From contig NZ_CP022111.1 in assembly GCF_000730165.1 (NCBI RefSeq), positions 992,001-1,056,000 on the forward strand: a stretch of DNA of 64,000 nt, read 5' to 3'. This DNA comes from Nitrospirillum viridazoti CBAmc (GTDB lineage Bacteria; Pseudomonadota; Alphaproteobacteria; Azospirillales; Azospirillaceae). Positions 6,657 to 24,575 of this stretch are shown in pieces. The position numbers and the translations under genes are program-made. Every line of letters starts with the position of its first letter. The stretch's first letter is position 1. The notes beneath the pieces are model-generated. The model had not been told where the DNA came from and searched no databases. It saw nothing but the letters and a program-made list of their open reading frames with translations.

Positions 6657-6667
6657 CAGGACGGGCC

Positions 6668-8203
<1,536 letters not shown>

Positions 8204-8298
8204 CGCCCGTCTCCTGACCGGTTATGGGTGCGCCGGATGGCGGCTGTTTTTGGGTGTGGCGATGGCAGCGGGGGCCACCTGGATTGACAGCTGCGATG

Positions 8299-8318
8299 TT
8301 TGCAAACAGTTTGATCCC
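8299..8318. promoter_or_regulatory. Candidate ScfR/PccR operator on the pccB side
   Basis: A perfect palindrome TTTGCAAA (8299-8306) is followed after three bases by a degenerate second copy beginning TTTGATC. The Rhodobacter sphaeroides regulator PccR is known to act at paired TTTGCAAA sites upstream of pccB. The site lies about 95 bp upstream of the pccB start, a suitable promoter position. The motif is seen; the function is inferred from the divergent regulator. Confidence 0.5.
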
Positions 8319-8365
8319 AGTTCAAGCCGATGCCACGCGAAATCGTGCGACGCCGGGGTGGTTAA

Positions 8366-8383
8366 TTTGTGAAGTTTGTAAAA
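8366..8383. promoter_or_regulatory. Candidate autoregulatory half-sites before the ScfR regulator
   Basis: Two imperfect copies of the same motif, TTTGTGAA and TTTGTAAA, sit one base apart about 22 bp before the regulator's start codon. The position would allow autorepression. Spacing is shorter than the published PccR arrangement, so this is tentative. Confidence 0.35.
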
Positions 8384-8404
8384 TTGAATGAGGGTGCAAC
8401 GGCC

Positions 8405-9841
8405 ATGGCGGGCAAGATTTTCGCGGGCGAACGGGTGCGGCAACTGCGCCAGCAGCGGGGCATGGCGCTGTCCGCCCTGGCCCAGGCCAGCCAGCTGTCC
8501 ATGAGTTATCTAAGCCAGATCGAAAACAATCAACGCCCCCTCAGCACGGCAGCGCTCGCGGCCATCTCCGCCGTGTTCGGGGTGGAACCGCGCCATTTCG
8601 CCGACGACAGCGATTTGCGCCTGGGCAGCGAGCTGCGCGAGGTACTGGGCGACCCGCTGTTCGCCGACGACGCCTCCGGCCTCAGCGCCATCAGCGACGC
8701 GGTACGCGCAGCACCCGGCATCGCCGGCCAGTTCATCAAGCTCTACCGCGCCTACCAGCATTTGATGGAGGAGGGGGCGCGCCACCGCCTGGATCAGGAT
8801 CTGGAGATGGAAACCGGCGGCACGGCGCCCTTCCCCTATGACGACGTGCGCGACTTCGTGCAGAGCAAGCGCAACCATTTCGCCAGCCTGGACGTGGCGG
8901 CGGAAACGCTGTTCGAAAGCCAGGGCTTCACCGCCACCCGCCTGCTGGAAGACCTGATCGACTACCTGCGCGATCGCCACGGCGTCACCTGCGCCGTGTC
9001 GGCGGCGCTGGGCGGGGAGGGGGTGCTGTGGCGCTACGATCCCGCCCTGCGCCAGCTGCATCTGGCGGAAAGCGCGCCGCGCGAAAGCCGCGCCTTCTTC
9101 CTGGCGCAGCAGATCGGCCGCATGCAGTTCGCCCCCCTGATCGAGGAGGAGGTGCGCAAGGCGCCGTTGAGCAGTCCCGAGGCGCGCGGCCTGGCCTACA
9201 CGGGCCTCGCCAATTACTTCGCCGGCGCCCTGATCCTGCCCTATGGCCGCTTCCTGACCCAGGCGCGGGCCGTGCGCCATGACATCGAACGGCTGCAGCA
9301 CCATTTCGGCACCAGCTTTGAGCAGGTGTGCCACCGGCTCAGCACCATGCAGCGGCCGGGCAACGCCGGCATCCCCTTCTACTTCCTGAAGGTCGACCGG
9401 GCGGGCAACATCTTCAAGCGCAGCAGCGCCACCCGTTTCCAGTTCGCCCGCTTCGGCGGCGCCTGCCCCTTGTGGAACGTGCACGAGGCCTTCGCCCAGC
9501 CGGGCCGCATCCTGGTGCAGGTGGCCCGCACGCCGGACGGCATCACCTATCTCTGCATCGCCCGCACCGTCACCATGACCGGTGGCGGCTACCTGTCCCG
9601 CCCGCGCGAGGCGGCGCTGGGCCTGGGCTGCGAGATCACCCATGCCGGCGACCTGGTCTATTCGGCCGGCCTGGACCTGCAGAACCAGGAAACGGCGGTG
9701 CCCATCGGTTCCAGCTGCAAGGTCTGCGACCGCGACGACTGCCGCCACCGCGCCTTCCCCTCCATCGGCCGGGGCCTGGCCATCGCCGGGCATGAGCGCC
9801 ACGTGGTACCGTTCAGCGTGACGCCTGGCGGGATTAAGTGA
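8405..9841 (+). CDS. Short-chain fatty acyl-CoA regulator (ScfR family), PccR-like
   Basis: The 478-aa product has an N-terminal XRE helix-turn-helix at about residues 8-65 (ERVRQLRQQRGMALSALAQ, SMSYLSQIENNQRPLS). A central ImmA/IrrE-like region carries FFLAQQIG in place of a metalloprotease HExxH, so no peptidase activity is expected. The C-terminal DUF2083-type domain has a cysteine-rich GSSCKVCDRDDCRHRAFPS. This architecture defines ScfR regulators that sense acyl-CoA esters. Divergence from pccB-pccA-mutase identifies it as the likely PccR equivalent. ATG 8405 was preferred over GTG 8369, as the longer start would overlap the motif and lacks a ribosome site. Confidence 0.87.
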   Translation: MAGKIFAGERVRQLRQQRGMALSALAQASQLSMSYLSQIENNQRPLSTAALAAISAVFGVEPRHFADDSDLRLGSELREVLGDPLFADDASGLSAISDAVRAAPGIAGQFIKLYRAYQHLMEEGARHRLDQDLEMETGGTAPFPYDDVRDFVQSKRNHFASLDVAAETLFESQGFTATRLLEDLIDYLRDRHGVTCAVSAALGGEGVLWRYDPALRQLHLAESAPRESRAFFLAQQIGRMQFAPLIEEEVRKAPLSSPEARGLAYTGLANYFAGALILPYGRFLTQARAVRHDIERLQHHFGTSFEQVCHRLSTMQRPGNAGIPFYFLKVDRAGNIFKRSSATRFQFARFGGACPLWNVHEAFAQPGRILVQVARTPDGITYLCIARTVTMTGGGYLSRPREAALGLGCEITHAGDLVYSAGLDLQNQETAVPIGSSCKVCDRDDCRHRAFPSIGRGLAIAGHERHVVPFSVTPGGIK

Positions 9842-11153: not shown

Positions 11154-11573
11154 TTAGTGCCGGCCCAGCTTACCCGCGGCGGGGCCGGCGGCGGCCACCG
11201 CCTGCTCCGCGCACTTGCTCAGGGTGTTCTCCTGGCAGGTGACTTCGGTGAAGCCCAGCGTCTGGCCCTGGGCGGAGGCGTAGCGGATGGGGAAGGCCAG
11301 CTTGTAGTGGATGCCCGAGCGCGCCGCCGCCGTGGGACCCTGCACCACCACGATCAGGGAATTGGCCCGGTGCCCGCTGCTGAGCACGAAGGCACCGTCG
11401 CGGCCGAAGGCCTGAACCACGGCGCCGGCCAGGGCGACCGTGACGTCATCATCGCCGCCGCGCAGCACCTCCACCTCGGTGGGGGCGCCGGCACGGGCGG
11501 GTGGCCATCCCGGGATGCACGCGACGGTCACGGCCATCACCACCGCCACTTTCACGATTCCGCGCGCATCCAT
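11154..11573 (-). CDS. Secreted hypothetical protein
   Basis: A 139-aa product with an N-terminal signal peptide (hydrophobic residues 6-20, likely cleavage after ARA near residue 28). The mature part is beta-rich (EVEVLRGGDDDVTVALAGAVV) with two cysteines near the C-terminus (TCQENTLSKCAEQ) that could pair. I recognise no family. It is probably periplasmic. The 264 bp between it and the divergent receptor gene hold no further gene, only presumed promoters. Confidence 0.6.
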   Translation of the reverse strand: MDARGIVKVAVVMAVTVACIPGWPPARAGAPTEVEVLRGGDDDVTVALAGAVVQAFGRDGAFVLSSGHRANSLIVVVQGPTAAARSGIHYKLAFPIRYASAQGQTLGFTEVTCQENTLSKCAEQAVAAAGPAAGKLGRH

Positions 11574-11837: not shown

Positions 11838-13790
11838 ATGGCATTGGTAAAGACCTCCCGCTTGGCCGGGGCGAAGGGCCGAGCCCGCACCCAGGCGGCG
11901 GCCGCCGCCACGGTCGAGGCGCCGGTGAAGGCCACGCCCAAGGCCGTGGCACCGCCCAAGCGCACGCGCCGGCCCCTGCTGGCCGCCACCCGCCAGACGG
12001 CGGCGGAACGTATCGCCGCCGCCACCGAGGAGCTGGCCGCCGGCGTGGCGGAGGCGTCCGCCGCGTCGGAAGAGCTGCGCCGGTCGCTGGAGCAGATCGC
12101 CAGCGCGGCGGAAGAGGCGGCGTCGGCCAGCCATGAATCCCTGGCGGCCGTCGCGGGCATGGCCACCTCGTTCCAGCAGGCGCGGGAGCGGGCGGACAGG
12201 GCGCAGACACGCACCTTGGCCTTGCAGACCCAGCTGACCGAGGCCGCCGCCCTGATCGAGGCGTCGGTGACGGCGGTGGCCGCCAGCGCCGACCGGCAAC
12301 TGAAATCGGTCGACATCATCGTCACGCTGGAGCGCCACGCCGACCATATCGGCGACATCACCCGCACGGTGGCGGACATATCCGACCAGACCGGCCTGCT
12401 GGCCCTGAACGCCGCCATCGAGGCGGCGCGGGCGGGCGATCACGGCCGGGGCTTCGCCGTGGTGGCGGATGAGGTGCGCGCCTTGTCAGAGACCTCGGAA
12501 AAGCGGTCGCGCGACGTTCAGGTTCTGGCCGGCAGCATCACGAATGAGGTGCGCATCGTCGCCGACCGGGTTCGCGCGGCGGCGGCCACGGCGACCGCCG
12601 AGGCGGCCGAGGGGCGCACCGTCACCACCCAGCTGGAGAGCACCCGCGCCGACCTGGCCGGCCTGGTCGATGGCGCCCAGGCCATCCTGCTGGCGGCAGT
12701 GGAGGCGGATGCCGCCGCGCGGGAGGCGCAAAAGGGGGCGGAAAACATCTCCAGCGCGGCGGAGGAACAGTCCGCGGCGGCGGCGGAGGCCCAGCGCTCC
12801 GTGGCGCAGCAGAGCCAGGCGCTGGACCAGAGCCGCCAGGCCGCCGATGCTCTGGCCGCCCTGTCCGAGGGCCTCAGCGTCGAAGGCCAGCGCGGCAGCC
12901 TGGTCGAAGACGTGGGCGCCATGGCGGAGCAACTGTCGGCGGCGGTGCAGCAGCTGTCGGGTGCTGCCGGCGAAATCCTGATCGCCATCAATCAGATCAG
13001 CCGGGGGGCCCAAATCCAGGCCGCCGCCACCCAGCAGTCCAGCAGCGCCATGGGTCAGATCCAGCGGGCGGCCCAAGCCACCAGCAGTAGCGCTGGCCAG
13101 GCGCTGGACCGGATCAAAGGCTCGCAAGCCATGCTGGCGCAAGGTCGTGCCACCGTGGCCAGGCTGACTCAGGGTGCGGGCCGGGCCCTGGCCGAAACCC
13201 GCGCGGTGATCGACCTGGTCGCCGCGCTGGAGGAAACCGGCCGGCGCATGGAGAAGATCGTGGACGGCATAGCCATCGTGGCGGTGCAGACCACGATGCT
13301 GGCCGTCAGCGGATCGGTCGAGGCAGCGCGGGTCGGGGACCAGGGTACCGGCTTCGCCGTGGTTTCCACCGATATCCGCGCCCTGGCGCGGGATTCGGGC
13401 GAAAACGCCGACCGCGCGAAGGACGTCATCCGCCAGTTCCAGCTGCTGGTGGCGGCCGTGCGCCGCGATCTGGAACAGATCGCCGCCGTGGCCGAGGCCG
13501 AGATGCAGAAGAACAAGGAGATCGACGTCCGGCTGGCCGCCATCGCCACCGGCGCGCAGGAGCTTTATGCCGCCAGCAGCGACATCGCTGCCGGGGCCGA
13601 CACCATCAGCGGCACGGTGCGCGAGGTGTTGAGCGGCGTGCAGCAGATCGCCGTGGCGGCGGAACTGGCCGGCGGGGCCGCCATCCAAGCCGCCACCGCC
13701 GCCCGGCAGCAAGCACGCGGGGCGGAAGACCTGGCGGCCGCCATCGAGGAGATCGCGTCGCTGGCCGACGAGTTGCAGAAAGCCGGGTGA
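11838..13790 (+). CDS. Soluble chemoreceptor with two MCP signalling tips
   Basis: This 650-aa receptor has no membrane segment and no recognisable sensor domain; it starts with about 50 basic, Ala/Pro-rich residues. The rest is long Ala/Glu-rich coiled coil. It carries one canonical methyl-accepting hairpin tip at about residues 183-217 ([18 protein letters not shown], then [16 protein letters not shown]). A second, diverged tip lies about 300 residues later, at about 483-517 ([18 protein letters not shown], then [15 protein letters not shown]). It therefore looks like two fused MCP signalling units. A ribosome site (gggga) precedes the ATG. It is first in the operon and should bind the CheW domains and CheA encoded downstream. 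Confidence 0.88.
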
Positions 13791-15322
13791 TGGCCGCTTC
13801 CAAGGCGGCCGGGGGCCGCCACCAGCACGTGCTGACCTTCCGCGTGGGCGCCATCCGATTGGCTGCTTCGGCCGCCGACGTGATCGAGGTGTTGCGCCCC
13901 GTGCGCGTGACCCGGATGCCGCACGCGCCACCCGGCTTGGCCGGGGTCGCCAGCGTACGCGGCGCCGTCGTGCCCGTGCTGTCGCTGGCGCGCCTGCTGG
14001 GCGGGGAGGAAGCCGCGTCCGGCGCCGCGTCCCGCCTTCTGCTGCTGCAGGCGGAGGAGCCCGTGGCGCTGACGGTGGACGAGGTGGGGGCGCTGGCCCA
14101 GCTTGACGCTGGCGCGGACCAGGCCGCCGGCGGGCTATACGCCCACGAGGACGGCGCCCTGCGCCTGATCGACTTGGCCGAGCTGCTGCGCCGGGAGTTT
14201 GCCGGCCTGATCCGGCGCGGCGCTGGGCCAGGCCGGGCGGAGCCTGCCGAGCCGCGCCGGCAGGCGGCCAAGGATGAGCGCGCCTTTCTGGCCTTCACCC
14301 TGGCGGATCAGGCCTACGCCTTGCCCTTGGCGGAGGTGGGGGAGGTCATCACCCTGCCGGACCATCTGGCGAAGCTGCCCCGTACCGACGCCGCCATGGT
14401 GGGCGCCGCGTCGCTACGAGGCGCCCTGCTGCCCATCGTTTCTCTGCGGGCGCTGCTGGGCCTGGGCATCGCCGCCAGCGATCAGCGCGGGGCGCGCGTG
14501 GTCATCGCCCATATCGGTGGGTCGCGGGTGGGGCTGCTGGTTGACCGGCTGAATTCCATCCTGCGCGTGCCGGCGGACAGCGTGGGCGCGGTGCCGGCGG
14601 TACTGAACCGGGGCCGGGGCGAGGCCCAGATCCAATCCATCTGCCGTCTGCCGGATGGTTGCGGCCTGGTCTCCATCCTGTCGGGCGCGCGGCTGTTCCG
14701 GGATGACACGGTGGCACATATTCTGGCGGATGGCGGCCCCGACCCGCAGGAGGCACCTGACATGAACCCTGACGGCCGTGCGACGACGGCTGACCGCGTG
14801 GTGGTCTTCCAGCTGGGGGACGAGGAATACGGCCTGCCCGTGGACGCGGTGGAGGAGGTGGTGCGCCTGCCCGACACCCTGACCCGTGTGCCCAAGGCGC
14901 CCGGCTTCATCGAGGGGGTCATGAACCTTCGCGGCCAGGTGCTGCCGGTCATCGACCAGCGCCGCCGGTTCGGCGTGGCGGGATCCGGCACCGGCCGCCG
15001 GCGGGTCATCGTGACCCGCATCAACGGCAAACTGGCCGGCTTCGCCGTGGATGGCGTGTCGGAGATCCTGGCCCTGCCAGCTGACCGGGTGAGTGAGACA
15101 CCGGATTTCACCCAGCCGGGCGACGCAGAGGGTGCCTCGGTGTTCAGCCGCATTGCCAACCTGGAGACGGCGGACGGTGCCGGCCGCATGATCCTGCTGA
15201 TCGAACCGCGGGCCCTGCTGGACCGGGCGGAGCGTGACCTGTTGGCCGCCCTCGACGCAGCCTTGAAGGGGGACGACGCCCCGGCGGGGAGCGATGCCAT
15301 GACCGGTTCGGCCGCCCCGTGA
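13790..15322 (+). CDS. Triple CheW-domain coupling protein
   Basis: The protein, 510 aa from the ATG at 13790, holds three consecutive CheW-like domains at about residues 12-140, 165-310 and 335-485, joined by Ala/Pro/Arg linkers. Each keeps the conserved arginine region used for receptor and CheA contact: ASVRGAVVPV, ASLRGALLPI and MNLRGQVLPV. The third is closest to ordinary CheW. CheW normally has one domain and links receptors to CheA; three could crosslink a receptor-kinase lattice. The start overlaps the receptor stop (TGATG), and the end overlaps cheB (GTGA), so all three genes are translationally coupled. Confidence 0.9.
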   Translation: MAASKAAGGRHQHVLTFRVGAIRLAASAADVIEVLRPVRVTRMPHAPPGLAGVASVRGAVVPVLSLARLLGGEEAASGAASRLLLLQAEEPVALTVDEVGALAQLDAGADQAAGGLYAHEDGALRLIDLAELLRREFAGLIRRGAGPGRAEPAEPRRQAAKDERAFLAFTLADQAYALPLAEVGEVITLPDHLAKLPRTDAAMVGAASLRGALLPIVSLRALLGLGIAASDQRGARVVIAHIGGSRVGLLVDRLNSILRVPADSVGAVPAVLNRGRGEAQIQSICRLPDGCGLVSILSGARLFRDDTVAHILADGGPDPQEAPDMNPDGRATTADRVVVFQLGDEEYGLPVDAVEEVVRLPDTLTRVPKAPGFIEGVMNLRGQVLPVIDQRRRFGVAGSGTGRRRVIVTRINGKLAGFAVDGVSEILALPADRVSETPDFTQPGDAEGASVFSRIANLETADGAGRMILLIEPRALLDRAERDLLAALDAALKGDDAPAGSDAMTGSAAP

Positions 15323-16473
15323 CCCGCCTGCTGATCGTGGACGACAGCGCCCTGGTCCGCCGTCTGCTGGGCGACCTGTTCACCGCGGCCGGTGATTTCG
15401 AGGTGGCGTTCGCCCGCGACGGGCTGGAGGCGCTGGCCCTGCTGCGGGGGTTCAATCCCGACGTCATCACCCTGGACGTCCACATGCCGCAGATGGACGG
15501 GCTGACCTGCCTGGACCAGATCATGGTGGAACAGCCCCGGCCGGTGGTGATGGTCTCCTCCTTCACCGAGGCGGGGGCCGAGGTGACGCTGGAAGCCATG
15601 GCGCTGGGGGCGGTGGATTTCATTCAGAAGCCGGAGGGGGCCATCTCCCTCAAGATGGACCAGTTGGGGCCCGGCCTGGTGGACAAGGTGCGCCAGGCGG
15701 CAGGCGCCCGCCTGCGCCGGTCCCACCGCCTGGCCGAGCGCCTGCGCCGGCAAGCGGACGCCATCGAGGCCGGCAGGCCGGATATCGGTGCCGTCCCCGG
15801 GGGTGCCGTCGCCCGGGCCAAGCGCGCCCGGTTGCTGACCGACGCCCTGCCGCAGGAGGTGGAGGGGGCGGCCTCGCCGGCGGAAAGTCAGGCGGTGCCC
15901 GGCCTGGTGCTCATCGGCTGTTCCACCGGTGGTCCGCCGGCGCTGGACGCCGTGCTGGAAGGGTTGCCGGCGGACTTTCCCTGGCCGGTGTTGGTGGCCC
16001 AGCACATGCCGGCCACCTTCACCGGCCCGCTGGCGCGCCGCCTGGACCGCCTCTGCGCCCTGACGGTGCAGGAAGTGGCGCGGCCCACCCCGCTGGCCCC
16101 GGGGAACGTCTATATCGGCCGGGGCGATGCCGACCTGGTCCTGAGCCAGCGCCCCTCCGGCTTGGTGGCGTTGCCCACCCCCGCCAAGGAGGAATACCGC
16201 TGGCATCCCAGCGTCGATCGGCTGGTCGAGAGCGCATTGTCGCTGGTGGAGCCGTGGCGCCTGGTGGGCGTGCTGATGACCGGCATGGGCTATGACGGCG
16301 CGGCCGCCATGACCCGCCTGCGCAACGACGGCGGACGCACCATCGCGGAGTCCGAGGAGAGCGCCGTGGTCTGGGGCATGCCGGGAGAACTGGTGAAGGC
16401 GGGCGGGGCAGACGTTGTGGCCCCGCTGGAGGAAATATCCGGCCGCCTGGTGCGTATGGTGGCCGGCCGATGA
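15319..16473 (+). CDS. cheB: Protein-glutamate methylesterase/deamidase
   Basis: CheB removes methyl groups from receptor glutamates once phosphorylated by CheA. The 384-aa product has an N-terminal receiver domain with phospho-acceptor Asp53 (VITLDVHMPQMDG) and Lys in FIQKPEG. The C-terminal esterase domain has the catalytic triad Ser202 (GCSTGG), His229 (AQHMP) and Asp326 (GMGYDGAAAM). The start is GTG, overlapping the CheW stop codon, and the stop overlaps cheR by four bases. Both halves look intact. Confidence 0.95.
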   Translation: MTRLLIVDDSALVRRLLGDLFTAAGDFEVAFARDGLEALALLRGFNPDVITLDVHMPQMDGLTCLDQIMVEQPRPVVMVSSFTEAGAEVTLEAMALGAVDFIQKPEGAISLKMDQLGPGLVDKVRQAAGARLRRSHRLAERLRRQADAIEAGRPDIGAVPGGAVARAKRARLLTDALPQEVEGAASPAESQAVPGLVLIGCSTGGPPALDAVLEGLPADFPWPVLVAQHMPATFTGPLARRLDRLCALTVQEVARPTPLAPGNVYIGRGDADLVLSQRPSGLVALPTPAKEEYRWHPSVDRLVESALSLVEPWRLVGVLMTGMGYDGAAAMTRLRNDGGRTIAESEESAVVWGMPGELVKAGGADVVAPLEEISGRLVRMVAGR

Positions 16474-17375
16474 GTCCCCGCCGCCCCCAGGGCCCCAGCG
16501 GCGACGCCCCGTTGCTGAGCGCGCCCGAACTCGCCCGCTTCTGCGAGTTCCTGTATGACCGCACGGGCATGCAGTTCGGGGAGAGCAAGCGGTATTACGT
16601 CGACCGGCGCGTGGGTCAGCGCATGGCGCTGACGGGGGCCGGCAGCTTCGCCGACTATTTCAACCACCTGCGCCTGGATCCCGTGGAGGCGGAGCGGCTG
16701 ATCAACAGCTTCACCGTCAACGAGACGTATTTCTACCGCGAAGACCATCAGTTGAAGAGCCTCAGCCGCGACATGCTGCCGGACATCGTTTCTCGGCGGG
16801 GGCCGGGCGACAAGCTGCGCCTATGGTCCATCCCTTGCTCGACGGGCGAAGAACCGTATTCCATCGCCATCTGGCTGCTGGAGAACTGGGCCATGGTGGA
16901 CGCCTATCATGTGGAGATCGTCGGCTCGGACATCGATACCCACGCCTTGGAGGAGGCGCGGCTGGGGCGGTACGCCGCCAAGTCGCTGGCGCGCTTGCCG
17001 CCGGATCTGCGGCGGGACTATTTTCTAGAGTCCAAAGGACGGGGTGGGGTTGAGCATTTCCAGATCATCCAGGATTTGCGGGAATCCGTGACCTTCACCA
17101 ATGCCAACCTGATGGATGGGGACGCGCTGGCCATTCACGGCAAGTTCGATGTCATCTTCTGCCGCAACCTGTTGATCTATTTCGATGACCGATCGCGGCG
17201 CCAGGCAGTGCGCAACCTGCACGACCGATTGGTGCCGGGCGGTTATCTGTGCCTGGGTCATTCGGAGTCGCTGGCCCGCCTGAGCGACAGTTTCGACGTA
17301 CAGCGTTTCGCCGACGCCGTGGTCTATCAGCGCCCGCGTGACCCCCGCCCAGCCAAGGCGGGCCGCGATGGATGA
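16470..17375 (+). CDS. cheR: Chemoreceptor methyltransferase
   Basis: CheR methylates receptor glutamates with S-adenosylmethionine. The 301-aa product has the N-terminal helical domain with FTVNETYFYRE. The SAM-binding Rossmann fold has SIPCSTGEEPYSIAI, VGSDID and the signature DVIFCRNLLIYF. There is no TPR or pentapeptide extension. It overlaps cheB by four bases and cheA by eight. The paired cheR/cheB implies that the two-tipped receptor is adjusted by methylation. Confidence 0.95.
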   Translation: MSPRRPQGPSGDAPLLSAPELARFCEFLYDRTGMQFGESKRYYVDRRVGQRMALTGAGSFADYFNHLRLDPVEAERLINSFTVNETYFYREDHQLKSLSRDMLPDIVSRRGPGDKLRLWSIPCSTGEEPYSIAIWLLENWAMVDAYHVEIVGSDIDTHALEEARLGRYAAKSLARLPPDLRRDYFLESKGRGGVEHFQIIQDLRESVTFTNANLMDGDALAIHGKFDVIFCRNLLIYFDDRSRRQAVRNLHDRLVPGGYLCLGHSESLARLSDSFDVQRFADAVVYQRPRDPRPAKAGRDG

Positions 17376-19377
17376 ACTGCTGGAACAGTTCCTGATCGAG
17401 GGGCCGGAGCAGGTGCAGCATGCGGGCGAAGCCTTGCTGGCCCTGGAAGGCCGGCCGGATGACGCCGCCCTGGTCGACCAGGCCTTTCGCGCCATCCACA
17501 CGCTCAAGGGCTCGGTCGGCCTGTTCGACCTGCCGGCCATGGGGCAGGTGCTGCATGTCGCGGAGGATCTGCTGGGCGCGTGGCGCGATGGGCGCCGGGC
17601 CCTGTCACGGGGCGCCGTGGACGCCTTGATCGCAGCCACCGGCCAGACGGAACGCTGGCTGGGCGTCCTGGCGGCAACGGGCGGCGGCCTGCCGGCGGAC
17701 GCCGACGCCGTGGCGGCCGACCTGGTCAGCCGCCTAAACCGCGCCCTCGACGGCGATGCGCCGCCATCGGCCCCGATCCAGGCGACGGACATCGACACCG
17801 CCTGGATCGAGGCCCTGTTCCGGGACCGCGACTTGGCCCCCGCCCGCCACCCCAGGGTGACGGCATTGCGCTATGTCCCCGATGCCGGCTGCTACTTCCG
17901 CGGGGATGATCCCGTCGCCTTCGCCCGGGCGGTGCCGGATCTGCTGGCCCTGCGCATTACCCGGCGGGATGTCGCCGCGCCGGTGGCGGCGGATGCCTAC
18001 GATCCCTACGCCTGCGATCTGGTGGTTGAATTGCTGTCGGCCGCGGCGCCGGAGGTGGTCAAGGGGCCCTTCCGTTTCGTGCCCGACCAAATCCAGCTGC
18101 TGTCCTGGTCGCCGCCTCCGTCGCCATCCGCGCCCGTGCCGCCGCCAGCTCTGGCGGAGGGGCCGCGCAGCCTGAGGGTGGAGGCCAGCCGTATCGACGC
18201 CCTGGCCCAGCTGGTGGATGAACTGGTGGTGGCCAAGAACGCGCTGTCCGACCTGGCGGGGCAGATGGCGGACGGATTGGCGCCGCAAGCGGCAGCGCAA
18301 ATACTGGGTGACCGCCAGGCGGCGCTGGACCGGCTGGTCGCGCGCCTGCACCGCACGGTGATGGGCATACGCCTGGTGCCCATCCTGCCCTTGCTGCGCC
18401 GCTTCCCCCGGGTTGTGCGCGAAACCGCGACCGCCTTGGGCAAGGAGGTTGACTTGGCGGTCGATGGTCAGGATGTCCAGGTCGACAAGGCCATCGTCGA
18501 GGGGTTGTTCGAACCCCTGACCCATTTGCTGCGTAACGCCGTCGATCACGGCATCGAGCCGGCAGCGGAGCGTGCGGCGGCGGGCAAGCCTGCCCGCGCC
18601 TTGATCAGCCTGGTCGCCCGGCGCGAGGGTGACCACGTCGTCATCGACGTGGCGGACGATGGGCGCGGCATGGACCCGGTCCGCATCCGCCGGGCTGCCG
18701 CCGCGCGTGGGCTGTTGCCCGACCGCATGCTGGACGCCCTGGCCGACGACCAGGTGCTGGACCTGGTGTTCCGTCCCGGCTTCTCGACCGCCGAGGCGGT
18801 GACCGACTTGTCCGGCCGGGGGGTGGGCATGGACGCGGTGCGCGCCGCGGTCGGCCGCCTGGGCGGCAGCGTTGGCATCAGCAGTGCCTCCGGCCAGGGC
18901 ACGACGGTGCGCCTGGTCCTGCCCCTGAACCTGGTGCTGACCAAGGTCATGATCGTGACGGTGGCGGGGGAGCGCTACGGCATCCCCATGGACGGCATCG
19001 TGGAAACGGCGCGTGTGGACCCGGACCGCGTCTTTCCCATCCGCGCTGGGAGGGCTTTCGTGCTGCGCGACACTGCCGTACCGCTCCTATCCCTGGCGGC
19101 ATTGCTGGGGTTGCCGGAAGAGGCGCGGGCGGACGGGGGACCGTGCCGGGCGGTGGTGGCGCGGATGGGTGGCGAGCTGGTGGCGGTGGAGGTTGGCGCG
19201 TTCGTCGGCCGGCGCGACGTGGTGTTGCGGCCTCTGACCGGCCTGCTATCCGCGATGCCGGGCGTGTTGGGGACAACTCTTTTGGGGGATGGGCACGTGC
19301 TGATGATCCTGGATGTGCCCGGCCTGATCGCCGCCGCGCCCAGCGACACGGCGCCGGTGGGGCAGGGGGCGCCATGA
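17368..19377 (+). CDS. cheA: Chemotaxis histidine kinase
   Basis: The 669-aa kinase has an Hpt domain with phospho-acceptor His44 (AIHTLKGSVG) and a 150-250 region resembling a P2 response-regulator-docking domain. A Pro-rich linker follows. The dimerisation helices (about 267-340) precede the ATP-binding domain with N-box LLRNAVDHGIE (387-397), DDGRGMD (430-436) and GRGVGMDAVR. A CheW-like P5 domain lies at about 520-660. There is only one Hpt domain and no receiver, unlike hybrid CheAs of some developmental Che systems. The ATG at 17368 was chosen because it is the conserved start of P1. The stop overlaps the STAS gene (ATGA). Confidence 0.94.
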   Translation: MDELLEQFLIEGPEQVQHAGEALLALEGRPDDAALVDQAFRAIHTLKGSVGLFDLPAMGQVLHVAEDLLGAWRDGRRALSRGAVDALIAATGQTERWLGVLAATGGGLPADADAVAADLVSRLNRALDGDAPPSAPIQATDIDTAWIEALFRDRDLAPARHPRVTALRYVPDAGCYFRGDDPVAFARAVPDLLALRITRRDVAAPVAADAYDPYACDLVVELLSAAAPEVVKGPFRFVPDQIQLLSWSPPPSPSAPVPPPALAEGPRSLRVEASRIDALAQLVDELVVAKNALSDLAGQMADGLAPQAAAQILGDRQAALDRLVARLHRTVMGIRLVPILPLLRRFPRVVRETATALGKEVDLAVDGQDVQVDKAIVEGLFEPLTHLLRNAVDHGIEPAAERAAAGKPARALISLVARREGDHVVIDVADDGRGMDPVRIRRAAAARGLLPDRMLDALADDQVLDLVFRPGFSTAEAVTDLSGRGVGMDAVRAAVGRLGGSVGISSASGQGTTVRLVLPLNLVLTKVMIVTVAGERYGIPMDGIVETARVDPDRVFPIRAGRAFVLRDTAVPLLSLAALLGLPEEARADGGPCRAVVARMGGELVAVEVGAFVGRRDVVLRPLTGLLSAMPGVLGTTLLGDGHVLMILDVPGLIAAAPSDTAPVGQGAP

Positions 19378-19616
19378 CGGTGGAGGTTGTGGGGAATGTG
19401 ATCCACCTGCGAGGCGTCTGCGCCGCCGAGGACGCGGAAGCCTTGCTGTCGCGGCTGCAGGCGGCGCCCCAGGCCGAAATCGACGTCACCGCCTGCCGCC
19501 ACCTGCACGGCGCCGTTGTCCAGGTTTTGCTCGCTTTTCGGCCTAATGTACGCGGTATGGCCGAAGATATATTTCTGCGCGACTGGGTCATACCCAATTT
19601 GGCCGCGCATCGCTAA
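19374..19616 (+). CDS. Minimal STAS-like protein coupled to cheA
   Basis: An 80-aa product whose ATG overlaps the cheA stop (ATGA). It has the size and pattern of a STAS (anti-sigma-antagonist) domain: a beta strand VEVVGNVIHLRG, a helix AEDAEALLSRL, a strand EIDVTACRHLHG, then a helix. The position usually occupied by a phosphorylated Ser/Thr in the DxSG-type loop reads LHGAVV, so phospho-switching as in SpoIIAA is not expected. STAS proteins bind partner domains, and translational coupling suggests a CheA-system partner. The call rests on fold pattern and context. Confidence 0.6.
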   Translation: MTVEVVGNVIHLRGVCAAEDAEALLSRLQAAPQAEIDVTACRHLHGAVVQVLLAFRPNVRGMAEDIFLRDWVIPNLAAHR

Positions 19617-19742
19617 GTCTTTCGCAGACAAGATTACTGAGCGCGCGCTATACATATTTGGTCACTGGCCGGGTGCGAAAAGACCGATAACTTGCTGGTG
19701 ACGACAATAGGCAGATTGGATGACTTGGGCGGGATGGTTGAA

Positions 19743-20126
19743 ATGGGTACTACGGTCTTAATCGTCGATGATAGCAAGCTAGCGCGCATCGTCGTGGCCA
19801 AGGCTATCGCGGCGCTGCAGCCCGGTTGGACAAAGGTCGAGGCGAGCAACGCCGACGAGGCGCTGGCCGTCCTGCGCGATGGTCAGGTCGATCTCGCCAT
19901 TCTGGACTTCAACATGCCCGGCCGAAATGGATTGGAATTGGCGGAGCATATGCGACATCGCTACCCGGACATGCCCATAGCGCTCGCGACCGCCAACGTG
20001 CAGGACGAGGTGATCGCCCGCGCCCGCGCGGCCAACGCCACCTTCGTCAGCAAGCCCATCACCGAAGACGGGATCCGGGATTTCCTGTCCGGCGCAGCCT
20101 TGAAGCTGCGCGCGGTGCACGGATGA
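19743..20126 (+). CDS. cheY: CheY-like single-domain response regulator
   Basis: A 127-aa receiver domain without output domain: acidic pair in VLIVDDS, phospho-acceptor Asp55 (LAILDFNMPG), Thr in ALATANV and Lys in FVSKPIT. It lies between the STAS gene and cheC, so it is the likely soluble phosphoryl carrier of this pathway. There is a 126-bp gap before it with lower GC, which may hold an internal promoter. An ATG at 19734 and one at 19692 are alternative starts; 19743 leaves the usual short lead before the first strand. The stop overlaps cheC. Confidence 0.88.
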   Translation: MGTTVLIVDDSKLARIVVAKAIAALQPGWTKVEASNADEALAVLRDGQVDLAILDFNMPGRNGLELAEHMRHRYPDMPIALATANVQDEVIARARAANATFVSKPITEDGIRDFLSGAALKLRAVHG

Positions 20127-20773
20127 ACCAAACCCCCCATATCCTGGATGAGTTGGAGAACGACGCGCTGACCGAACTGGTCAACATCGGTGTCAGCCGC
20201 GCGGCCGTCAGCCTGCGCAAGATGGTGGGCAACCAGGTGACGCTGTCAGTGCCGTCGGTGGAGGTGGTGGGGCGCAAGCTGGCCGCCACCCTGATCCAGG
20301 AGCGGGAAAGCGATGAACTGGTGGCCGTTCGCCAGGACTTCTCCGGCGCCTTCAACGGCCGCGCCCTGCTGATCTTCCCTGAGTCCAATAGCCTGGAACT
20401 GGTCCGCGCCGTCACCCAGGACGAGCTGTCGCGGACGGAGATGGTGGACATCGAGGAGGAGGCCCTGGCCGAGACGGGCAACGTCGTTCTGAACGGTTGC
20501 CTGGCCACCATGGCCAATATCCTGCAGCGGCCCCTGACCATGTCGTTGCCGCAGGTGCTGCGCGGCGATGGGCAGATCCTGTTCGAACTGGCGGAAAAGC
20601 ACGATGACGACGGCGTCGTCCTGTTCCTGTACATCAATTTCGCCATCAGCGGCCGGGACATCCGGGGCTATATCGCCATGCTGATGGATCTGCCGTCGTT
20701 GCAGTCGCTGAAGGAGCTGATTGGCGAATTCATTGCGCGGGTGGTGGGCACGGATGGTGGCGATGCCCACTGA
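20123..20773 (+). CDS. cheC: CheC-type CheY-phosphate phosphatase
   Basis: The 216-aa product carries both CheC active-site motifs of the form D/E-x3-E-x2-N-x22-P. The first is DALTELVN followed 23 residues later by Pro; the second is EALAETGN followed by Pro at the same distance. Having two copies is typical of CheC rather than CheX. CheC dephosphorylates CheY-P. It overlaps cheY by four bases (ATGA), naming its likely substrate. No cheD, the usual CheC partner, and no cheZ is present in the operon. Confidence 0.9.
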   Translation: MNQTPHILDELENDALTELVNIGVSRAAVSLRKMVGNQVTLSVPSVEVVGRKLAATLIQERESDELVAVRQDFSGAFNGRALLIFPESNSLELVRAVTQDELSRTEMVDIEEEALAETGNVVLNGCLATMANILQRPLTMSLPQVLRGDGQILFELAEKHDDDGVVLFLYINFAISGRDIRGYIAMLMDLPSLQSLKELIGEFIARVVGTDGGDAH

Positions 20774-20809
20774 TGGTCTTGCCCCTGGCGCCGGGGGAAG
20801 GGGGCGGGC

Positions 20810-23638
20810 ATGAGCGGCCGAGCGGAGGCTGTGATCGTGATGGAGCGGGACGGCGGGGTTTTGCCGGAGGTGCGGGCGCTGTGCGGTCCGCTGCTGGACG
20901 CGCTGGTCCAATCCGGCATGCCCCTGACCATCACCGACCATCGCCGTCCGGGCGAGCCGCTGGTTTTCGCCAACCCCGCGTTCGAACGCCTGACCGGCCA
21001 CGCCTTCAGCGGCCTGGCCAACCGGCCCTTCGGCTTCCTGGCCGCCGCCGATGCCGACCCGGCCATCCTGGCCGGGATCGAGGAGGCTTTGGCCGCCGAC
21101 CGGCCGCTGACGGCCGATCTGCGGGTGATGCGCAAGGATGGCACCATCTTCTGGGACCGGCTGCGCCTGACCCCGGTGGTGGACGGCCAGGGCGCCACGC
21201 CCTATTTCCTGTGGACCCATTGCGACCAGACCGTGGACCTTGCGCGCATGGAGGTGGAGGCCGAGCTGGCCGCCAGCCGCCAGGCGCTGGCCAACGCCAA
21301 GGAACGGGCGCGCCTGGCCCAGGCCGTGGGCGGCACCGCCGGGGCCTGGGAATGGGATGTGGCCGATGGCCGGCTTTACGCCGACGCCCGCTTCGCCGAG
21401 CTGTACGGCCTGGATCCGGTGGCTACCGGCAATGGCCTGTCCACCGACGCCTTCTTCGATTCCATCCATACCGATGACCGCATGCGCATCCGCATTGCCG
21501 TGGCCGGGGTGATGCATGGCGCCGACATCTTCGCCAAGGACTACCGGGTGGTGGGCCGCGACGGCACGGTGCACTGGGTCTCGGCCCGCGGGGGGGCCGA
21601 CCGCACCGCCGACGGGACGGTGCGCCGCTTCCGCGGGGTGCTGGCCGACATCACCGAGCAGAAGCGGGTGGAGGAGCAACTGCGCGTGGCCCAGACGGCC
21701 GGCGGCGTGGGCACGTTCGAGTACATCAGCGGCTTCGGCACCGTATCCGTATCTGAACAGTTCTGCCGCCTGCTGGGCCTGCACCCGACCACGGCCCTGC
21801 CAGTGCGCACCGTCAACGCCGTGGTGCTGGCCGATGACGCCCCCCTGATCACCAGCCTGGAAGGCGGGGAGACGGCGCCTCCCTATCGCGAGTTCCGCAT
21901 CCGCAGGCCTGACACGGGGGAGATCCGCTGGCTGGCCCAGCGAGGAGAGCACCGCCGCGACGGCAAGCGTGACCGCGAAGGCCGCCAGGGATCCGGCAGC
22001 CGCTTCATCGGCGTGATCTACGACATCACCGCGTCAAAGGACGCGGAGGCAAAGCTGCGCCAGTTCGCGGAGACGCTGGAGGCGCGGGTGGAGGAACGCA
22101 CGCGGGAGCGTGACCGCGTTTGGAACAACTCCCGCGACCTGCTGGTCATCATCGGCGCCGACGGCATCTGCCGGGCGGTCAGCCCCTCCTGGACCGCCAT
22201 CCTGGGCTATGAAACGGATGAGGTGGCAGGCCGTCAGGTGCAGGACTTCGTCCACGCCGACGACGTGGTGGCGACGGCGGAGGCGCTGATGGGCGCCCTA
22301 CATGACCAGAACCTGACCAATTTCGAGAATCGCCAGCTGCACAAGGACGGCAGCCTGCGCTGGATCTCCTGGAACACGTCCAAGGAAGGCGATCTGGTCT
22401 ACGCCTATGGCCGCGACATCACCGAGGACAAGCAGCGCGCCGACATGCTGCGCCAGACGGAAGAGCAGCTGCGCCAGGCCCAGAAGATGGAGGCCGTGGG
22501 CCAACTGACCGGTGGGCTGGCGCACGACTTCAACAACATGCTCATGGGCGTCATCGGCGGCCTGGACATCGTGCGTCGCCGCATTTCCCAGGGCCGGCTG
22601 AACGACCTGGACCGTTTCATGGACGCCTCCATGGCCTCGGCCCAGCGCGCGGCGGCCCTGACCCACCGCCTGCTGGCCTTCTCGCGCCGGCAGTCGCTGG
22701 ACCCCAAGCCCATCGACGTCAACGGCCTGGTGCGGTCCATGGAGGATCTGCTGCGCCGAACTTTGGGCGAGCAGATCGAGCTGCGCATCACCGTGGCGGA
22801 GAACCTGACGGCAGCCCGCAGTGACGTGAACCAGCTGGAAAGCGCCATCCTCAACCTGGCGATCAACGCGCGCGACGCCATGCCCGACGGCGGCATCCTG
22901 ACCATCGAGACCAGCCGCGCCACCCTGGACCGGTCCTACACCAACCGGCATGACGGCCTGTCGCCCGGCGACTATGTCATGATCCGGGTCAGCGATACCG
23001 GCATGGGCATGCCGCCCGATGTGGTGGCGAAGGCCTTCGATCCCTTCTTCACCACCAAACCCATCGGCCAGGGCACGGGCCTGGGCCTGTCCATGATCTA
23101 TGGTTTCGTGAAGCAGACGGGCGGCCACGTGCGCATCGACAGCGAGCCCTGGCGCGGCACGGCCATCATCCTGTACCTGCCCTGCGATGGTGGCGCCAAC
23201 GCCCAGGATGGCGGCTTTGCCGGCATGGGCGAAACCCCGGAAGGGGCTGGGGAGATCGTCCTGGTGGTTGAGGATGACGATTCCGTGCGGCTGCTGGTCC
23301 TGGATGTGCTGCAGGAACTGGGATACACCGCCCTGCACGCGGCCGATGGGCGCGGTGCGCTGAGCGTCATCGAATCCTCCAGCCAGATCGATCTGCTGAT
23401 CACCGATGTCGGCTTGCCGGGTTTGAATGGCCGGCAATTGGCGGAGATCGCGCGCCGGCGGCGGCCCAACCTGCCGGTTCTGTTCGTCACGGGGTACGCC
23501 GCCAACGCCGCCGTACGCGGCGATTTCCTGGAACCGGGCATGGACATGGTGATGAAGCCCTTCGCCATGGACGAACTGGCGGCCAAGATCCGCGGCATCC
23601 TGGAAGAGCGGCAGGTGCTGGCGGCCGCTCCCTCTTAG
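20810..23638 (+). CDS. Multi-PAS hybrid sensor histidine kinase
   Basis: The 942-aa cytoplasmic protein has no membrane segment. It has four PAS/PAC units at about residues 25-145, 165-285, 290-415 and 430-545. The first resembles a LOV domain (NPAFERLTG) but reads RPFGFL where LOV photosensors have NCRFL, so it lacks the flavin-binding cysteine. A HisKA domain with His572 ([11 protein letters not shown]), an HATPase domain ([26 protein letters not shown]) and a C-terminal receiver with Asp866 (LITDVGLPG) follow. It starts 36 bp after cheC on the same strand with a good ribosome site, so it probably belongs to the chemosensory operon. Confidence 0.9.
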
Positions 23639-23732: not shown

Positions 23733-24575
23733 ATGCGGATGAATTTGATCATGGGCGCGGTGGCCCTGTCGGTGCTGGCGGGCTGCGCCGCCACCGGACA
23801 AGGAACGGATGGCGCGGGAACGGCCGGGCAGGGCACCAGCGCCACGCCGGCCCAGCTTTTCGCCCGCTCCCTGAACGCGGCCGCCGTGGCGCGGCCGGAC
23901 TTGATCGGGCCGGAGCTGGTGCGCATCGCGCCCGACGCCCCCCAGACATCCTGGGCCAAACTGGTGTGGCGTGATGGGCCGCACGGGCGCCAGGTGCTGG
24001 TGGCCTCGACCATGGCGGCGTCGGCCTATGAGAAGTACTACGCTGGCAAGGCCGGCGGCACTTCGCCCGACAGCTGGGGCACCATGTGGGTGACGGCCGT
24101 GCCGCAGCTGCAGGAGTTTTGCGCCGGTGCCGTTGGCGACGCCACGGCCAAAACCGAACGGGTGAAACAGTATCTGGGCCTGGACCCGTCCCGCGATTAT
24201 TCCGAGGTGGTGGAGATGTGGGTGGCGCCCGAGGCGCTGGCCCGCCCGTGTCCGGACACCGACGTGACGACCGCCCACTGCACCCTGGACACCTCATCCA
24301 CCGTGGCCCGGCCCAACTGCGCCGCCGGCGACGCCGCTTGCCTGGAGAAGCAGGGCTATTGGGATTGGTTCGCCCGCAACATGCGCGTGAACTATGTCGA
24401 GGGCGGCGCGCCCTGGACCCGCTTGGGTTATACCTATGACTGGCATCCCCAGGCCGGCGGGCCCGATGGCGCCGTCCGCTATGGCGCCAGTGAATTCATC
24501 CTGAAGCCCAGCCGCCCCTATGACATCCGCGCTGCCTACACCCTGGCCGACTATTGCCGCAAGCCAGCGGCCTGA
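23733..24575 (+). CDS. Putative lipoprotein of unknown function
   Basis: A 280-aa product with a lipoprotein signal peptide ending in the lipobox LAGC (Cys near residue 18). A flexible Gly/Thr/Ala stretch (about residues 19-38) follows. The mature domain contains several cysteines, including PCPDTDVTTAHC and NCAAGDAAC. Aromatic segments YWDWFARNM and GYTYDWHP suggest a compact extracytoplasmic domain. No family was recognised. It lies 94 bp after the hybrid kinase and 20 bp before the DUF4269 gene. Confidence 0.65.
   Translation: MRMNLIMGAVALSVLAGCAATGQGTDGAGTAGQGTSATPAQLFARSLNAAAVARPDLIGPELVRIAPDAPQTSWAKLVWRDGPHGRQVLVASTMAASAYEKYYAGKAGGTSPDSWGTMWVTAVPQLQEFCAGAVGDATAKTERVKQYLGLDPSRDYSEVVEMWVAPEALARPCPDTDVTTAHCTLDTSSTVARPNCAAGDAACLEKQGYWDWFARNMRVNYVEGGAPWTRLGYTYDWHPQAGGPDGAVRYGASEFILKPSRPYDIRAAYTLADYCRKPAA

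What the first reader, a model, noticed from the sequence alone, without database searches (positions are those of the whole stretch)
11838..23638. A complete chemosensory operon with atypical scaffold and added STAS/CheC/hybrid kinase parts
Nine same-strand genes run mcp, cheW3x, cheB, cheR, cheA, STAS, cheY, cheC, hybrid kinase. The first six junctions overlap, except that a 126-bp gap precedes cheY. Three parts are unusual together: a soluble receptor with two tips, a triple CheW, and a STAS protein coupled to CheA. No flagellar or pilus gene is adjacent. Che systems with hybrid kinases control development in Rhodospirillum centenum. I infer a non-motility or combined output that may act through the STAS protein or the hybrid kinase. 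This is the best candidate here for an undescribed system.
Basis: partly seen in the sequence, partly recalled or inferred. Interest (0 to 1): 0.75.

Follow-up and report, generated by a model that had tools for sequence, protein, structure and literature searches.

The report
Compact class-F9 cytoplasmic chemosensory operon
This is a slimmed-down version of a known but poorly understood bacterial sensing machine that floats inside the cell rather than in the membrane; the machine is not new, but this version is trimmed and refitted, and it carries a small unnamed partner protein whose gene sits beside the kinase gene in nearly every relative examined.

Summary
The nine genes are real and intact. 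CheA falls with 47 other F9-type CheAs against 12 others (support 100/100); the two tips lie 300 residues apart in 24 of 25 receptors. The core order mcp-cheW3-cheB-HEAT-cheR-RR-cheA-STAS is complete in 65 of 80 named loci. Here HEAT and RR are gone and cheY-cheC-hybrid kinase follows; this compact form is one group (support 100), also on plasmids of Novosphingobium, Sphingobium, Rhizobium and Agrobacterium. The STAS-like gene follows cheA in 65 of 66 usable named loci, yet Pfam sees STAS in only 15 of 54. R. centenum Che2, the best-studied relative, sets flagella number rather than taxis, but lies on another F9 branch, and no second, lateral-type FliM was found in the window's genus. Most likely a cytoplasmic array feeds CheY and the hybrid kinase to set flagellation or lifestyle; the output is untested.

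The parts
11838..13790 (+). mcp: soluble DosM-type receptor, 650 aa, two signalling tips, no ligand-binding domain found by Pfam, no obvious transmembrane segment
   Evidence: tip Glu at residues 195 and 495, spacing 300; tip 2 matches the F9 tip-2 signature
13787..15322 (+). cheW3: triple CheW-domain coupling protein, 511 aa
   Evidence: three CheW stretches, 265.9 bits
15319..16473 (+). cheB: receptor methylesterase with receiver; S202, H229, D326 and receiver D53 present
16470..17375 (+). cheR: receptor methyltransferase, 301 aa
17338..19377 (+). cheA: class F9 histidine kinase (likely start 17368); Hpt H54, N-box N400, D441 present; no receiver domain
19374..19616 (+). small STAS-like protein, 80 aa, overlaps the cheA stop by 4 bp; His45 invariant in relatives
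   Evidence: (STAS_2 23.0 bits, below cut-off)
19617..19742 (+). 126-bp gap with sequence conserved in the genus; a CAGACA-N18-TATACA stretch here (CAGACA in 6 of 7, TATACA in 6 of 7 genomes) might be a promoter for cheY-cheC-hybrid kinase
   Evidence: the generic sigma-70 scan found no site
19743..20126 (+). cheY: single-domain receiver, 127 aa, D9/D55/T83/K104 present
20123..20773 (+). cheC/cheX-type CheY-P phosphatase, 216 aa, both E..N centres (E18/N21, E117/N120) present
   Evidence: (Thermotoga CheC 1xkr E 2.4e-9)
20810..23638 (+). soluble hybrid histidine kinase, 942 aa: four PAS_3 stretches, HisKA (H572), HATPase_c, receiver (D866)

Best explanation
A class F9 chemosensory system of a compact subtype. 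Shown by sequence: soluble two-tip receptor, triple CheW, F9-clade CheA with its catalytic residues, CheB, CheR, CheY, a CheC-type phosphatase with both E..N centres, and a soluble PAS hybrid kinase, conserved as one block through the genus. Inferred from V. cholerae cluster I: receptor and CheW3/CheA build a two-layered cytoplasmic array, the receptor bridging both base plates as a rod of fixed length. Inferred: another cytoplasmic receptor or the PAS hybrid kinase supplies an intracellular (redox or metabolic) signal; CheA phosphorylates CheB (adaptation) and CheY; CheC removes phosphate from CheY; the STAS-like protein sits at CheA and tunes phosphoryl flow as CheS does; the hybrid kinase is a second input on CheY and/or is itself phosphorylated by CheA on its receiver. 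Inferred output: a change in flagellation or lifestyle rather than moment-to-moment motor switching. Class assignment about 0.97; array about 0.85; CheY as hub about 0.6; flagellation/lifestyle output about 0.5.
For: F9 CheA group 48 vs 12 others, 100/100 (48 vs 14, SH-aLRT 98). DosM and triple CheW are called unique to F9 (PMC9321776 passages) and are present in V. cholerae cluster I, whose published locus numbers (DosM 1403, CheW3 1402, CheA 1397, an MCP 1394) are consistent with the ten-gene run mcp-cheW3-cheB-HEAT-cheR-RR-cheA-STAS-RR-mcp seen in L073 (annotated) and L115. Receptor tip spacing 300 residues in 24 of 25, 299 in one. Catalytic residues conserved. R. centenum Che2 has a tripartite CheW and two small unknown proteins; its mutants change flagella number but stay chemotactic; A. 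brasilense Che2 is F9 with cheC and not needed for chemotaxis. cheY-cheC-kinase follows in 13 of 13 compact loci (in G063 on a second contig); the kinases of the two Rhizobiaceae compact loci have no receiver (Pfam), which favours CheY as a shared target.
Against: No experiment on this operon. The window lineage is not on the branch of R. centenum Che2 or of A. brasilense/A. lipoferum Che2 within F9, and in its genus no second-type FliM (168-181 bits, which I take for the lateral flagellum) was found, while 41 of 60 F9-bearing genomes of the order have one, so the lateral-flagella role cannot simply be carried over. One compact F9 genome (G696, about 400 contigs) shows neither FliM nor FlhA. 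The identity of G076 as R. centenum is indirect. 300 residues of straight helix would span about 45 nm (0.15 nm per residue, recalled), more than the 35 nm reported for V. cholerae. L147, a named F9 locus, lacks cheB, HEAT, cheR and RR1 by the same scan, so the core is not invariable.
Confidence: 0.6

Rival explanations
1. Non-flagellar output through the hybrid kinase, as in R. centenum Che3: CheA phosphorylates the kinase's receiver, which controls CheY phosphorylation and a developmental, surface or cyst-like programme.
For: The kinase ends the operon in 7 of 7 genomes of the genus; PMC3868531 (passages) shows CheA3 phosphorylating CheS3 REC1, and CheS3, not CheA3, phosphorylating CheY3; a compact F9 system in a genome where FliM and FlhA were not found (G696).
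Against: Different class and domain order (CheS3: two N-terminal receivers and an HWE kinase; here PAS domains first and a C-terminal receiver); the kinases of the Rhizobium and Agrobacterium compact loci lack the receiver, so a receiver relay cannot be general in the subtype.
Confidence: 0.25
2. Ordinary chemotaxis: CheY-P acts on the single flagellar motor type of this genus.
For: CheY and CheC are complete; FliM or FlhA is found in 68 of 69 genomes with a strong F9 STAS match; a published survey finds 97% of F9 species with a complete flagellar set.
Against: The genome has three other CheA loci, two of which group with Azospirillaceae CheAs that I take for F5 and F7 (class labels inferred); the F9 systems described in the passages seen are not needed for chemotaxis or have no known phenotype.
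Confidence: 0.1
3. The STAS-like protein is the output: a partner switch controlling an anti-sigma factor or another regulator.
For: It follows cheA in 65 of 66 usable named F9 loci and is profile-related to STAS proteins of other che operons (97.4%, E 1.5e-11).
Against: It is short, matches only about the first 50 STAS_2 positions, and where canonical anti-sigma antagonists have the phosphoacceptor Ser (position recalled, not aligned here) it has Ala47 in 52 of 54. The known STAS partner CheS acts on CheA-CheY phosphoryl flow. No anti-sigma family among the eight flanking ORFs scanned.
Confidence: 0.05

Closest known systems
V. cholerae cluster I (class F9; DosM VC1403, CheW3 VC1402, CheA VC1397)
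   Same: Two-tip soluble receptor, concatenated triple CheW, own CheA; published locus numbers are consistent with the F9 gene order found here
   Different: Window lacks the HEAT and RR1 genes and a trailing RR-mcp pair; has cheY-cheC-hybrid kinase instead. The V. cholerae sequences themselves were not compared here
R. centenum Che2 (lateral-flagella biosynthesis), read here as L074/G076
   Same: Triple CheW, two-tip MCP, CheA-STAS adjacency, same core order
   Different: Has HEAT and RR1, a longer CheA (877-aa frame), no cheY-cheC-kinase block found in the 9 kb behind it; different F9 branch
A. brasilense / A. lipoferum Che2 (F9, with cheC), read here as L071 / L070
   Same: F9 core plus cheY and cheC; STAS after cheA
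   Different: cheY-cheC lies upstream of mcp; HEAT and RR1 present; no kinase after STAS on the same strand; different F9 branch
Compact F9 operons on plasmids of Novosphingobium resinovorum, Sphingobium yanoikuyae, Rhizobium sp. L51/94, Agrobacterium vitis
   Same: Same nine-gene layout, one group with the window
   Different: Kinases shorter; those of Rhizobium and Agrobacterium (509 and 506 aa) lack the receiver, those of Novosphingobium and Sphingobium have it
CheS of S. meliloti / A. fabrum (STAS-only CheA partner)
   Same: Small STAS-related protein encoded with CheA; profile match to STAS proteins of other che operons
   Different: STAS_2 over cut-off in 4 of 4 such che-operon proteins tested, versus a shorter, sub-threshold F9 form with an invariant His; CheS itself was not compared
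R. centenum Che3 / CheS3 (cysts, ACF)
   Same: A hybrid kinase encoded with a Che cluster
   Different: CheA-receiver fusion, two separate CheWs and another kinase architecture; different CheA clade

Membership tests
Chemosensory class F9 | CheA falls in the F9 CheA clade | tested here: met
   48 F9-type rows one group against 12 others, 100/100; F9 rows include the A. brasilense and A. lipoferum che2-type loci (identified by gene content).
Chemosensory class F9 | Receptor with two tandem signalling domains and no sensory domain (DosM) | tested here: met
Chemosensory class F9 | Concatenated triple CheW | tested here: met
Chemosensory class F9 | Gene order mcp-cheW3-cheB-(HEAT)-cheR-(RR)-cheA-STAS (order observed here, not a published criterion) | tested here: met
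   of 38 loci with cheB, cheR and cheA, 25 have HEAT and RR1 and 13, this one included, have neither
Chemosensory class F9 | Two-layered cytoplasmic array | not testable with these tools
   needs cryo-tomography
R. centenum Che2-type (F9, flagella number) | Same F9 branch as the R. centenum cluster | tested here: not met
   separated by branches of SH-aLRT 100 in a five-protein tree
ACF / R. centenum Che3 | CheA fused to a receiver, single CheWs, ACF CheA clade | tested here: not met
   no receiver in CheA, triple CheW; CheA groups with F9
CheS (STAS-only CheA partner) | STAS domain over Pfam cut-off | tested here: not met
   23.0 bits vs 29.2; 15 of 54 F9 relatives match STAS_2 at E<=0.01
CheS (STAS-only CheA partner) | Binds CheA and alters CheY dephosphorylation | not testable with these tools
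   bench assay needed
CheC/CheX phosphatase | CheC-like family match with E..N phosphatase centres | tested here: met
   PF13690 43.3 bits, PF04509 22.8 bits, both over cut-off; E and N at both centres in 27 of 27
[quoted passage not shown] name used for two A. brasilense Che2 proteins) | Arg-rich [Y/F]xGP[D/E][R/K]R motif after the receiver | tested here: not met
   0 of 68 cheY/RR1/RR2 receivers in the F9 loci carry it (pattern search); motif from PMC5677366

The most novel reading that the evidence does not exclude
The small STAS-like protein is a constitutive, so far unnamed subunit of class F9 arrays, with its own signature (His45 in all 28 and all 54 sequences of two alignments, Gln50 in 28 and 53, Ala47 in 25 and 52; no phosphoacceptor Ser), probably docking on CheA; and the compact subtype has replaced the HEAT and receiver branch by a cheY-cheC-kinase unit in which an array kinase and a soluble PAS kinase converge on one CheY, so that the array works without lateral flagella and, in at least one lineage, apparently without any flagellum.
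Probability: 0.35. Interest if true: 0.55.

Novelty: new variant of a known kind. Interest (0 to 1): 0.36.

Why it matters
F9 arrays have a solved architecture but, in the passages read, no known physiological role in V. cholerae or in general. A single-origin subtype that lacks two components, carries a phosphatase and a second kinase, occurs on plasmids and persists where lateral-type flagellar genes are not found gives a clean comparison for asking what these arrays do. The overlooked STAS-like protein is an easy deletion target that is likely to be informative in any F9 species.

Tried and rejected
Considered and rejected: (1) ACF/Che3 homology: no CheA receiver, triple CheW, different CheA clade. 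(2) LOV photosensing by the first PAS of the kinase: NCBIfam lists sub-threshold LOV-family hits, but by eye the segment where the LOV cysteine would be (motif recalled) has none; no alignment was made. (3) c-di-GMP control through a Cle motif: 0 of 68 receivers. (4) Lateral-flagellum control: F9 and the second-type FliM co-occur (41 of 60 F9+ genomes against 4 of 22 F9-; not corrected for kinship, and 'lateral' is my reading of the 168-181-bit matches; lower-scoring third types, e.g. in G015, G041 and G050, were counted as absent), but none was found in 7 of 7 genomes of the window's genus. In one of these (G063, 730 contigs) no FliM at all was found though FlhA was.

Dead ends: the F9 HEAT alignment had no stretch conserved enough to scan with; no solved-structure relative of the STAS-like protein (best E 0.47); structure prediction was never accepted. 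R. centenum did not appear by name in the genome-contig scan (best 80 of a capped list, and records near the window may be left out), so G076 = R. centenum rests on size (4,355,543 against a published 4,355,548), on strong matches at three CheA loci, on CheA positions that roughly fit the locus tags, and on the triple CheW. Against it: that paper says the Che2 CheA carries a receiver; Pfam finds none in L074. I did not settle whether the paper's sentence or my identification is wrong.

Samples and rows dropped: CheA trees took 32 of 43 F9 loci plus 16 of 80 named loci, and other CheAs scoring over 150 bits and over 400 aa; L106 was too short, and one search also left out L061 and L208 (long branches). 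Not a balanced class panel. Concatenated tree: 31 of 43 F9 loci had all five proteins, and the compact locus of G248 (L116) is not among them. Named loci: 66 of 80 had cheA with at least 300 bp behind it; the one miss (L168) has a broken cheA frame, and one search lists a STAS further on. The 80 named loci are those nearest to L074 and include no compact operon. Alignment A6 took 53 of the 65 named STAS proteins plus the window's. Alignment A7 was drawn from 12 of 15 weak hits of the F9 STAS model, so its similarity is partly by selection.
Full report
What is there. Nine co-directional genes occupy 11838-23638. Pfam confirms each part, the STAS call being sub-threshold (23.0 bits, cut-off 29.2). 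CheA most likely starts at 17368. None of the nine proteins shows a clear membrane segment. Catalytic residues are present in the window and its relatives: CheC E/N 27 of 27 at both centres; CheY D9, D55 and K104 26 of 26; CheB S/H/D and receiver D 36 of 36; CheA N400 and D441 37 of 37, H54 in 28 with 9 gaps (starts set too far in by my script); kinase H572 22 of 22, receiver D866 in 18 with 4 gaps.

The window lies in a 7.38-Mb, four-contig genome. It has four CheA loci and 52 MCP-domain matches. All nine genes recur in order in the other 6 genomes of the genus, split over two contigs in one. Upstream neighbours (ScfRs-type regulator, mgtC, msrB, an unknown ORF) recur in 6 of 6; downstream ones (unknown ORF, EamA transporter) in 4 of the 5 whose locus reaches there, not in L050.

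What it is. V. cholerae cluster I has a concatenated triple CheW and the double-signalling-domain receptor DosM, which bridges the two base plates of a purely cytoplasmic array (PMC7534058, passages). [quoted passage not shown] For this family, PMC3245306 (figure legend) has F5, F9 and ACF systems in the common ancestor of azospirilla and R. centenum; PMC8429497 names A. brasilense che2 F9; that R. centenum Che2 is F9 I infer by elimination and from its triple CheW.

I tested membership directly. In trees of CheA P3-P5 regions, 48 F9-type rows are one group against 12 others with support 100/100, or against 14 others with SH-aLRT 98; the others include the three further CheAs of this genome and two of them. 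The receptor's two tip glutamates are exactly 300 residues apart in 24 of 25 receptors aligned and 299 in one, and tip 2 has its own signature, different from tip 1. In 65 of the 80, tblastn finds the whole core mcp-cheW3-cheB-HEAT-cheR-RR1-cheA-STAS in that order, followed by a receiver and an MCP in 51, a receiver alone in 11, neither in 3; of the other 15, L147 lacks cheB, HEAT, cheR and RR1, and the rest are shorter, mostly at contig ends (not each checked). Unlisted genes may lie between those found: L111 and L112 have 0.7-0.8 kb between STAS and the next receiver. In the annotated Sphaerotilus locus and in L115 the run is ten genes, which is consistent with the published V. cholerae numbers (DosM 1403, CheW3 1402, CheA 1397, an MCP 1394) and would make 1400 the HEAT and 1396 the STAS-like gene; no V. 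cholerae sequence was compared.

What is different here. Of 38 F9 loci with cheB, cheR and cheA, 25 have both HEAT and RR1 and 13 have neither. The 13 compact loci are all followed by cheY-cheC-kinase (in G063 on a second contig). In a tree of five concatenated proteins from 31 operons, the 11 compact operons with all five are one side of a branch (SH-aLRT 100), inside a larger branch (16 operons, 100) all of which carry cheY-cheC and 14 a kinase in the stretch read. L074 (R. centenum-like) and the A. lipoferum/A. brasilense operons lie on the other side. So the window shares the class, not the branch, of the characterised Che2 systems. Compact operons sit on plasmids of Novosphingobium, Sphingobium, Rhizobium and Agrobacterium, and the window genus does not group with the other F9 operons of its own family in that tree, which points to transfer (inference).

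The STAS-like protein. It lies within 150 bp of the cheA end in 65 of 66 usable named loci, in 42 of them overlapping by one base, and beside a CheA match in 65 of 66 strong places in the order, the other having no CheA in the truncated list. Records name it 'hypothetical protein' in 8 of 8 annotated plasmid loci. Pfam matches STAS_2 at E<=0.01 in 15 of 54 members; NCBIfam names no STAS in any. His45 is in 28 of 28 and 54 of 54 sequences of two alignments, Gln50 in 28 and 53, Ala47 in 25 and 52, Ala47 being, by recalled alignment, where anti-sigma antagonists have their phosphoserine. Comparison with a profile of STAS proteins from other che operons gives 97.4%, E 1.5e-11 over 59 columns; those were found with the F9 model, and 15 of 15 such weak places lie beside che genes. 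A STAS-only gene in che gene orders is already mentioned in a figure legend (PMC9239204; figure not held), so its presence is not new; I found no description of this F9 form in searches of an open-licence library, whose results I saw as listings and, for the papers named below, passages.

Does it need flagella? The F9 STAS model matches 60 of 82 genomes of the order strongly, 8 of 398 across the phylum at E<=1e-14 (12 more weakly), and 5 of 385 in the class. FliM or FlhA is found in 68 of the 69 genomes with a strong match. The exception, G696 (97% complete, about 400 contigs), has a compact F9 operon and neither gene. A second-type FliM, which I take for the lateral flagellum, is in 41 of 60 F9-bearing and 4 of 22 other genomes of the order, but in none of the 7 of the window's genus; relatedness was not corrected for.

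How it most likely works. See best explanation. The array, the CheA-CheY-CheC core and CheB/CheR adaptation follow from homology. The role of the kinase is open: in the two Rhizobiaceae compact loci it has no receiver, which favours CheY as the common target, while R. centenum Che3 shows that a CheA can instead act on a kinase receiver (PMC3868531, passages). The 126-bp gap holds sequence conserved through the genus that resembles a promoter, although the generic scan found none, so cheY-cheC-kinase may also be expressed apart from the array.

Papers: seen as passages found by search terms: PMC2890560, PMC3169532, PMC6759762, PMC10782961, PMC8561660, PMC8100600, PMC12654446, PMC3245306, PMC7534058, PMC4618731, PMC9321776, PMC9239204, PMC3868531, PMC5677366, PMC8429497. 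None read whole; no supplements. Briegel 2016, Dogra 2012, Berleman and Bauer 2005 and Wuichet and Zhulin 2010 are known to me here only as cited in these.

Noticed in passing
G000:C3:430113-430289 (L107): A true STAS_2 protein (48.6 bits, over cut-off) beside a cheA in another che operon of the same genome, the likely CheS counterpart.
   Followed up: partly
window 2494-9841: ORFs that read by eye like methylmalonyl-CoA mutase and propionyl-CoA carboxylase subunits (no family call made), next to an ScfRs-domain regulator that recurs beside the Che operon in the genus; a metabolic neighbour that might hint at the signal.
   Followed up: no
window 11154-11573 and 23733-24575: Two ORFs flanking the operon with no Pfam family; the first recurs in 6 of 6 genus loci, the second in 4 of the 5 that reach there.
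   Followed up: no
L118 (G696): Compact F9 operon with a second cheC after the hybrid kinase, in a genome where FliM and FlhA were not found.
   Followed up: partly
order survey: G018, G020, G030, G039, G041, G058: Six genomes have two strong F9 STAS places, so two F9 systems may coexist in one cell.
   Followed up: no
alignment A4 of F9 receptors: Tip-to-tip spacing is almost fixed at 300 residues; as straight helix this is about 45 nm, longer than the 35 nm reported for the V. cholerae array. Unexplained.
   Followed up: no
L147 (Magnetospirillum sp. UT-4): An F9 locus in which the scan finds mcp, cheW3, cheA and STAS but no cheB, HEAT, cheR or RR1 between them; a possible adaptation-less F9 variant.
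   Followed up: no
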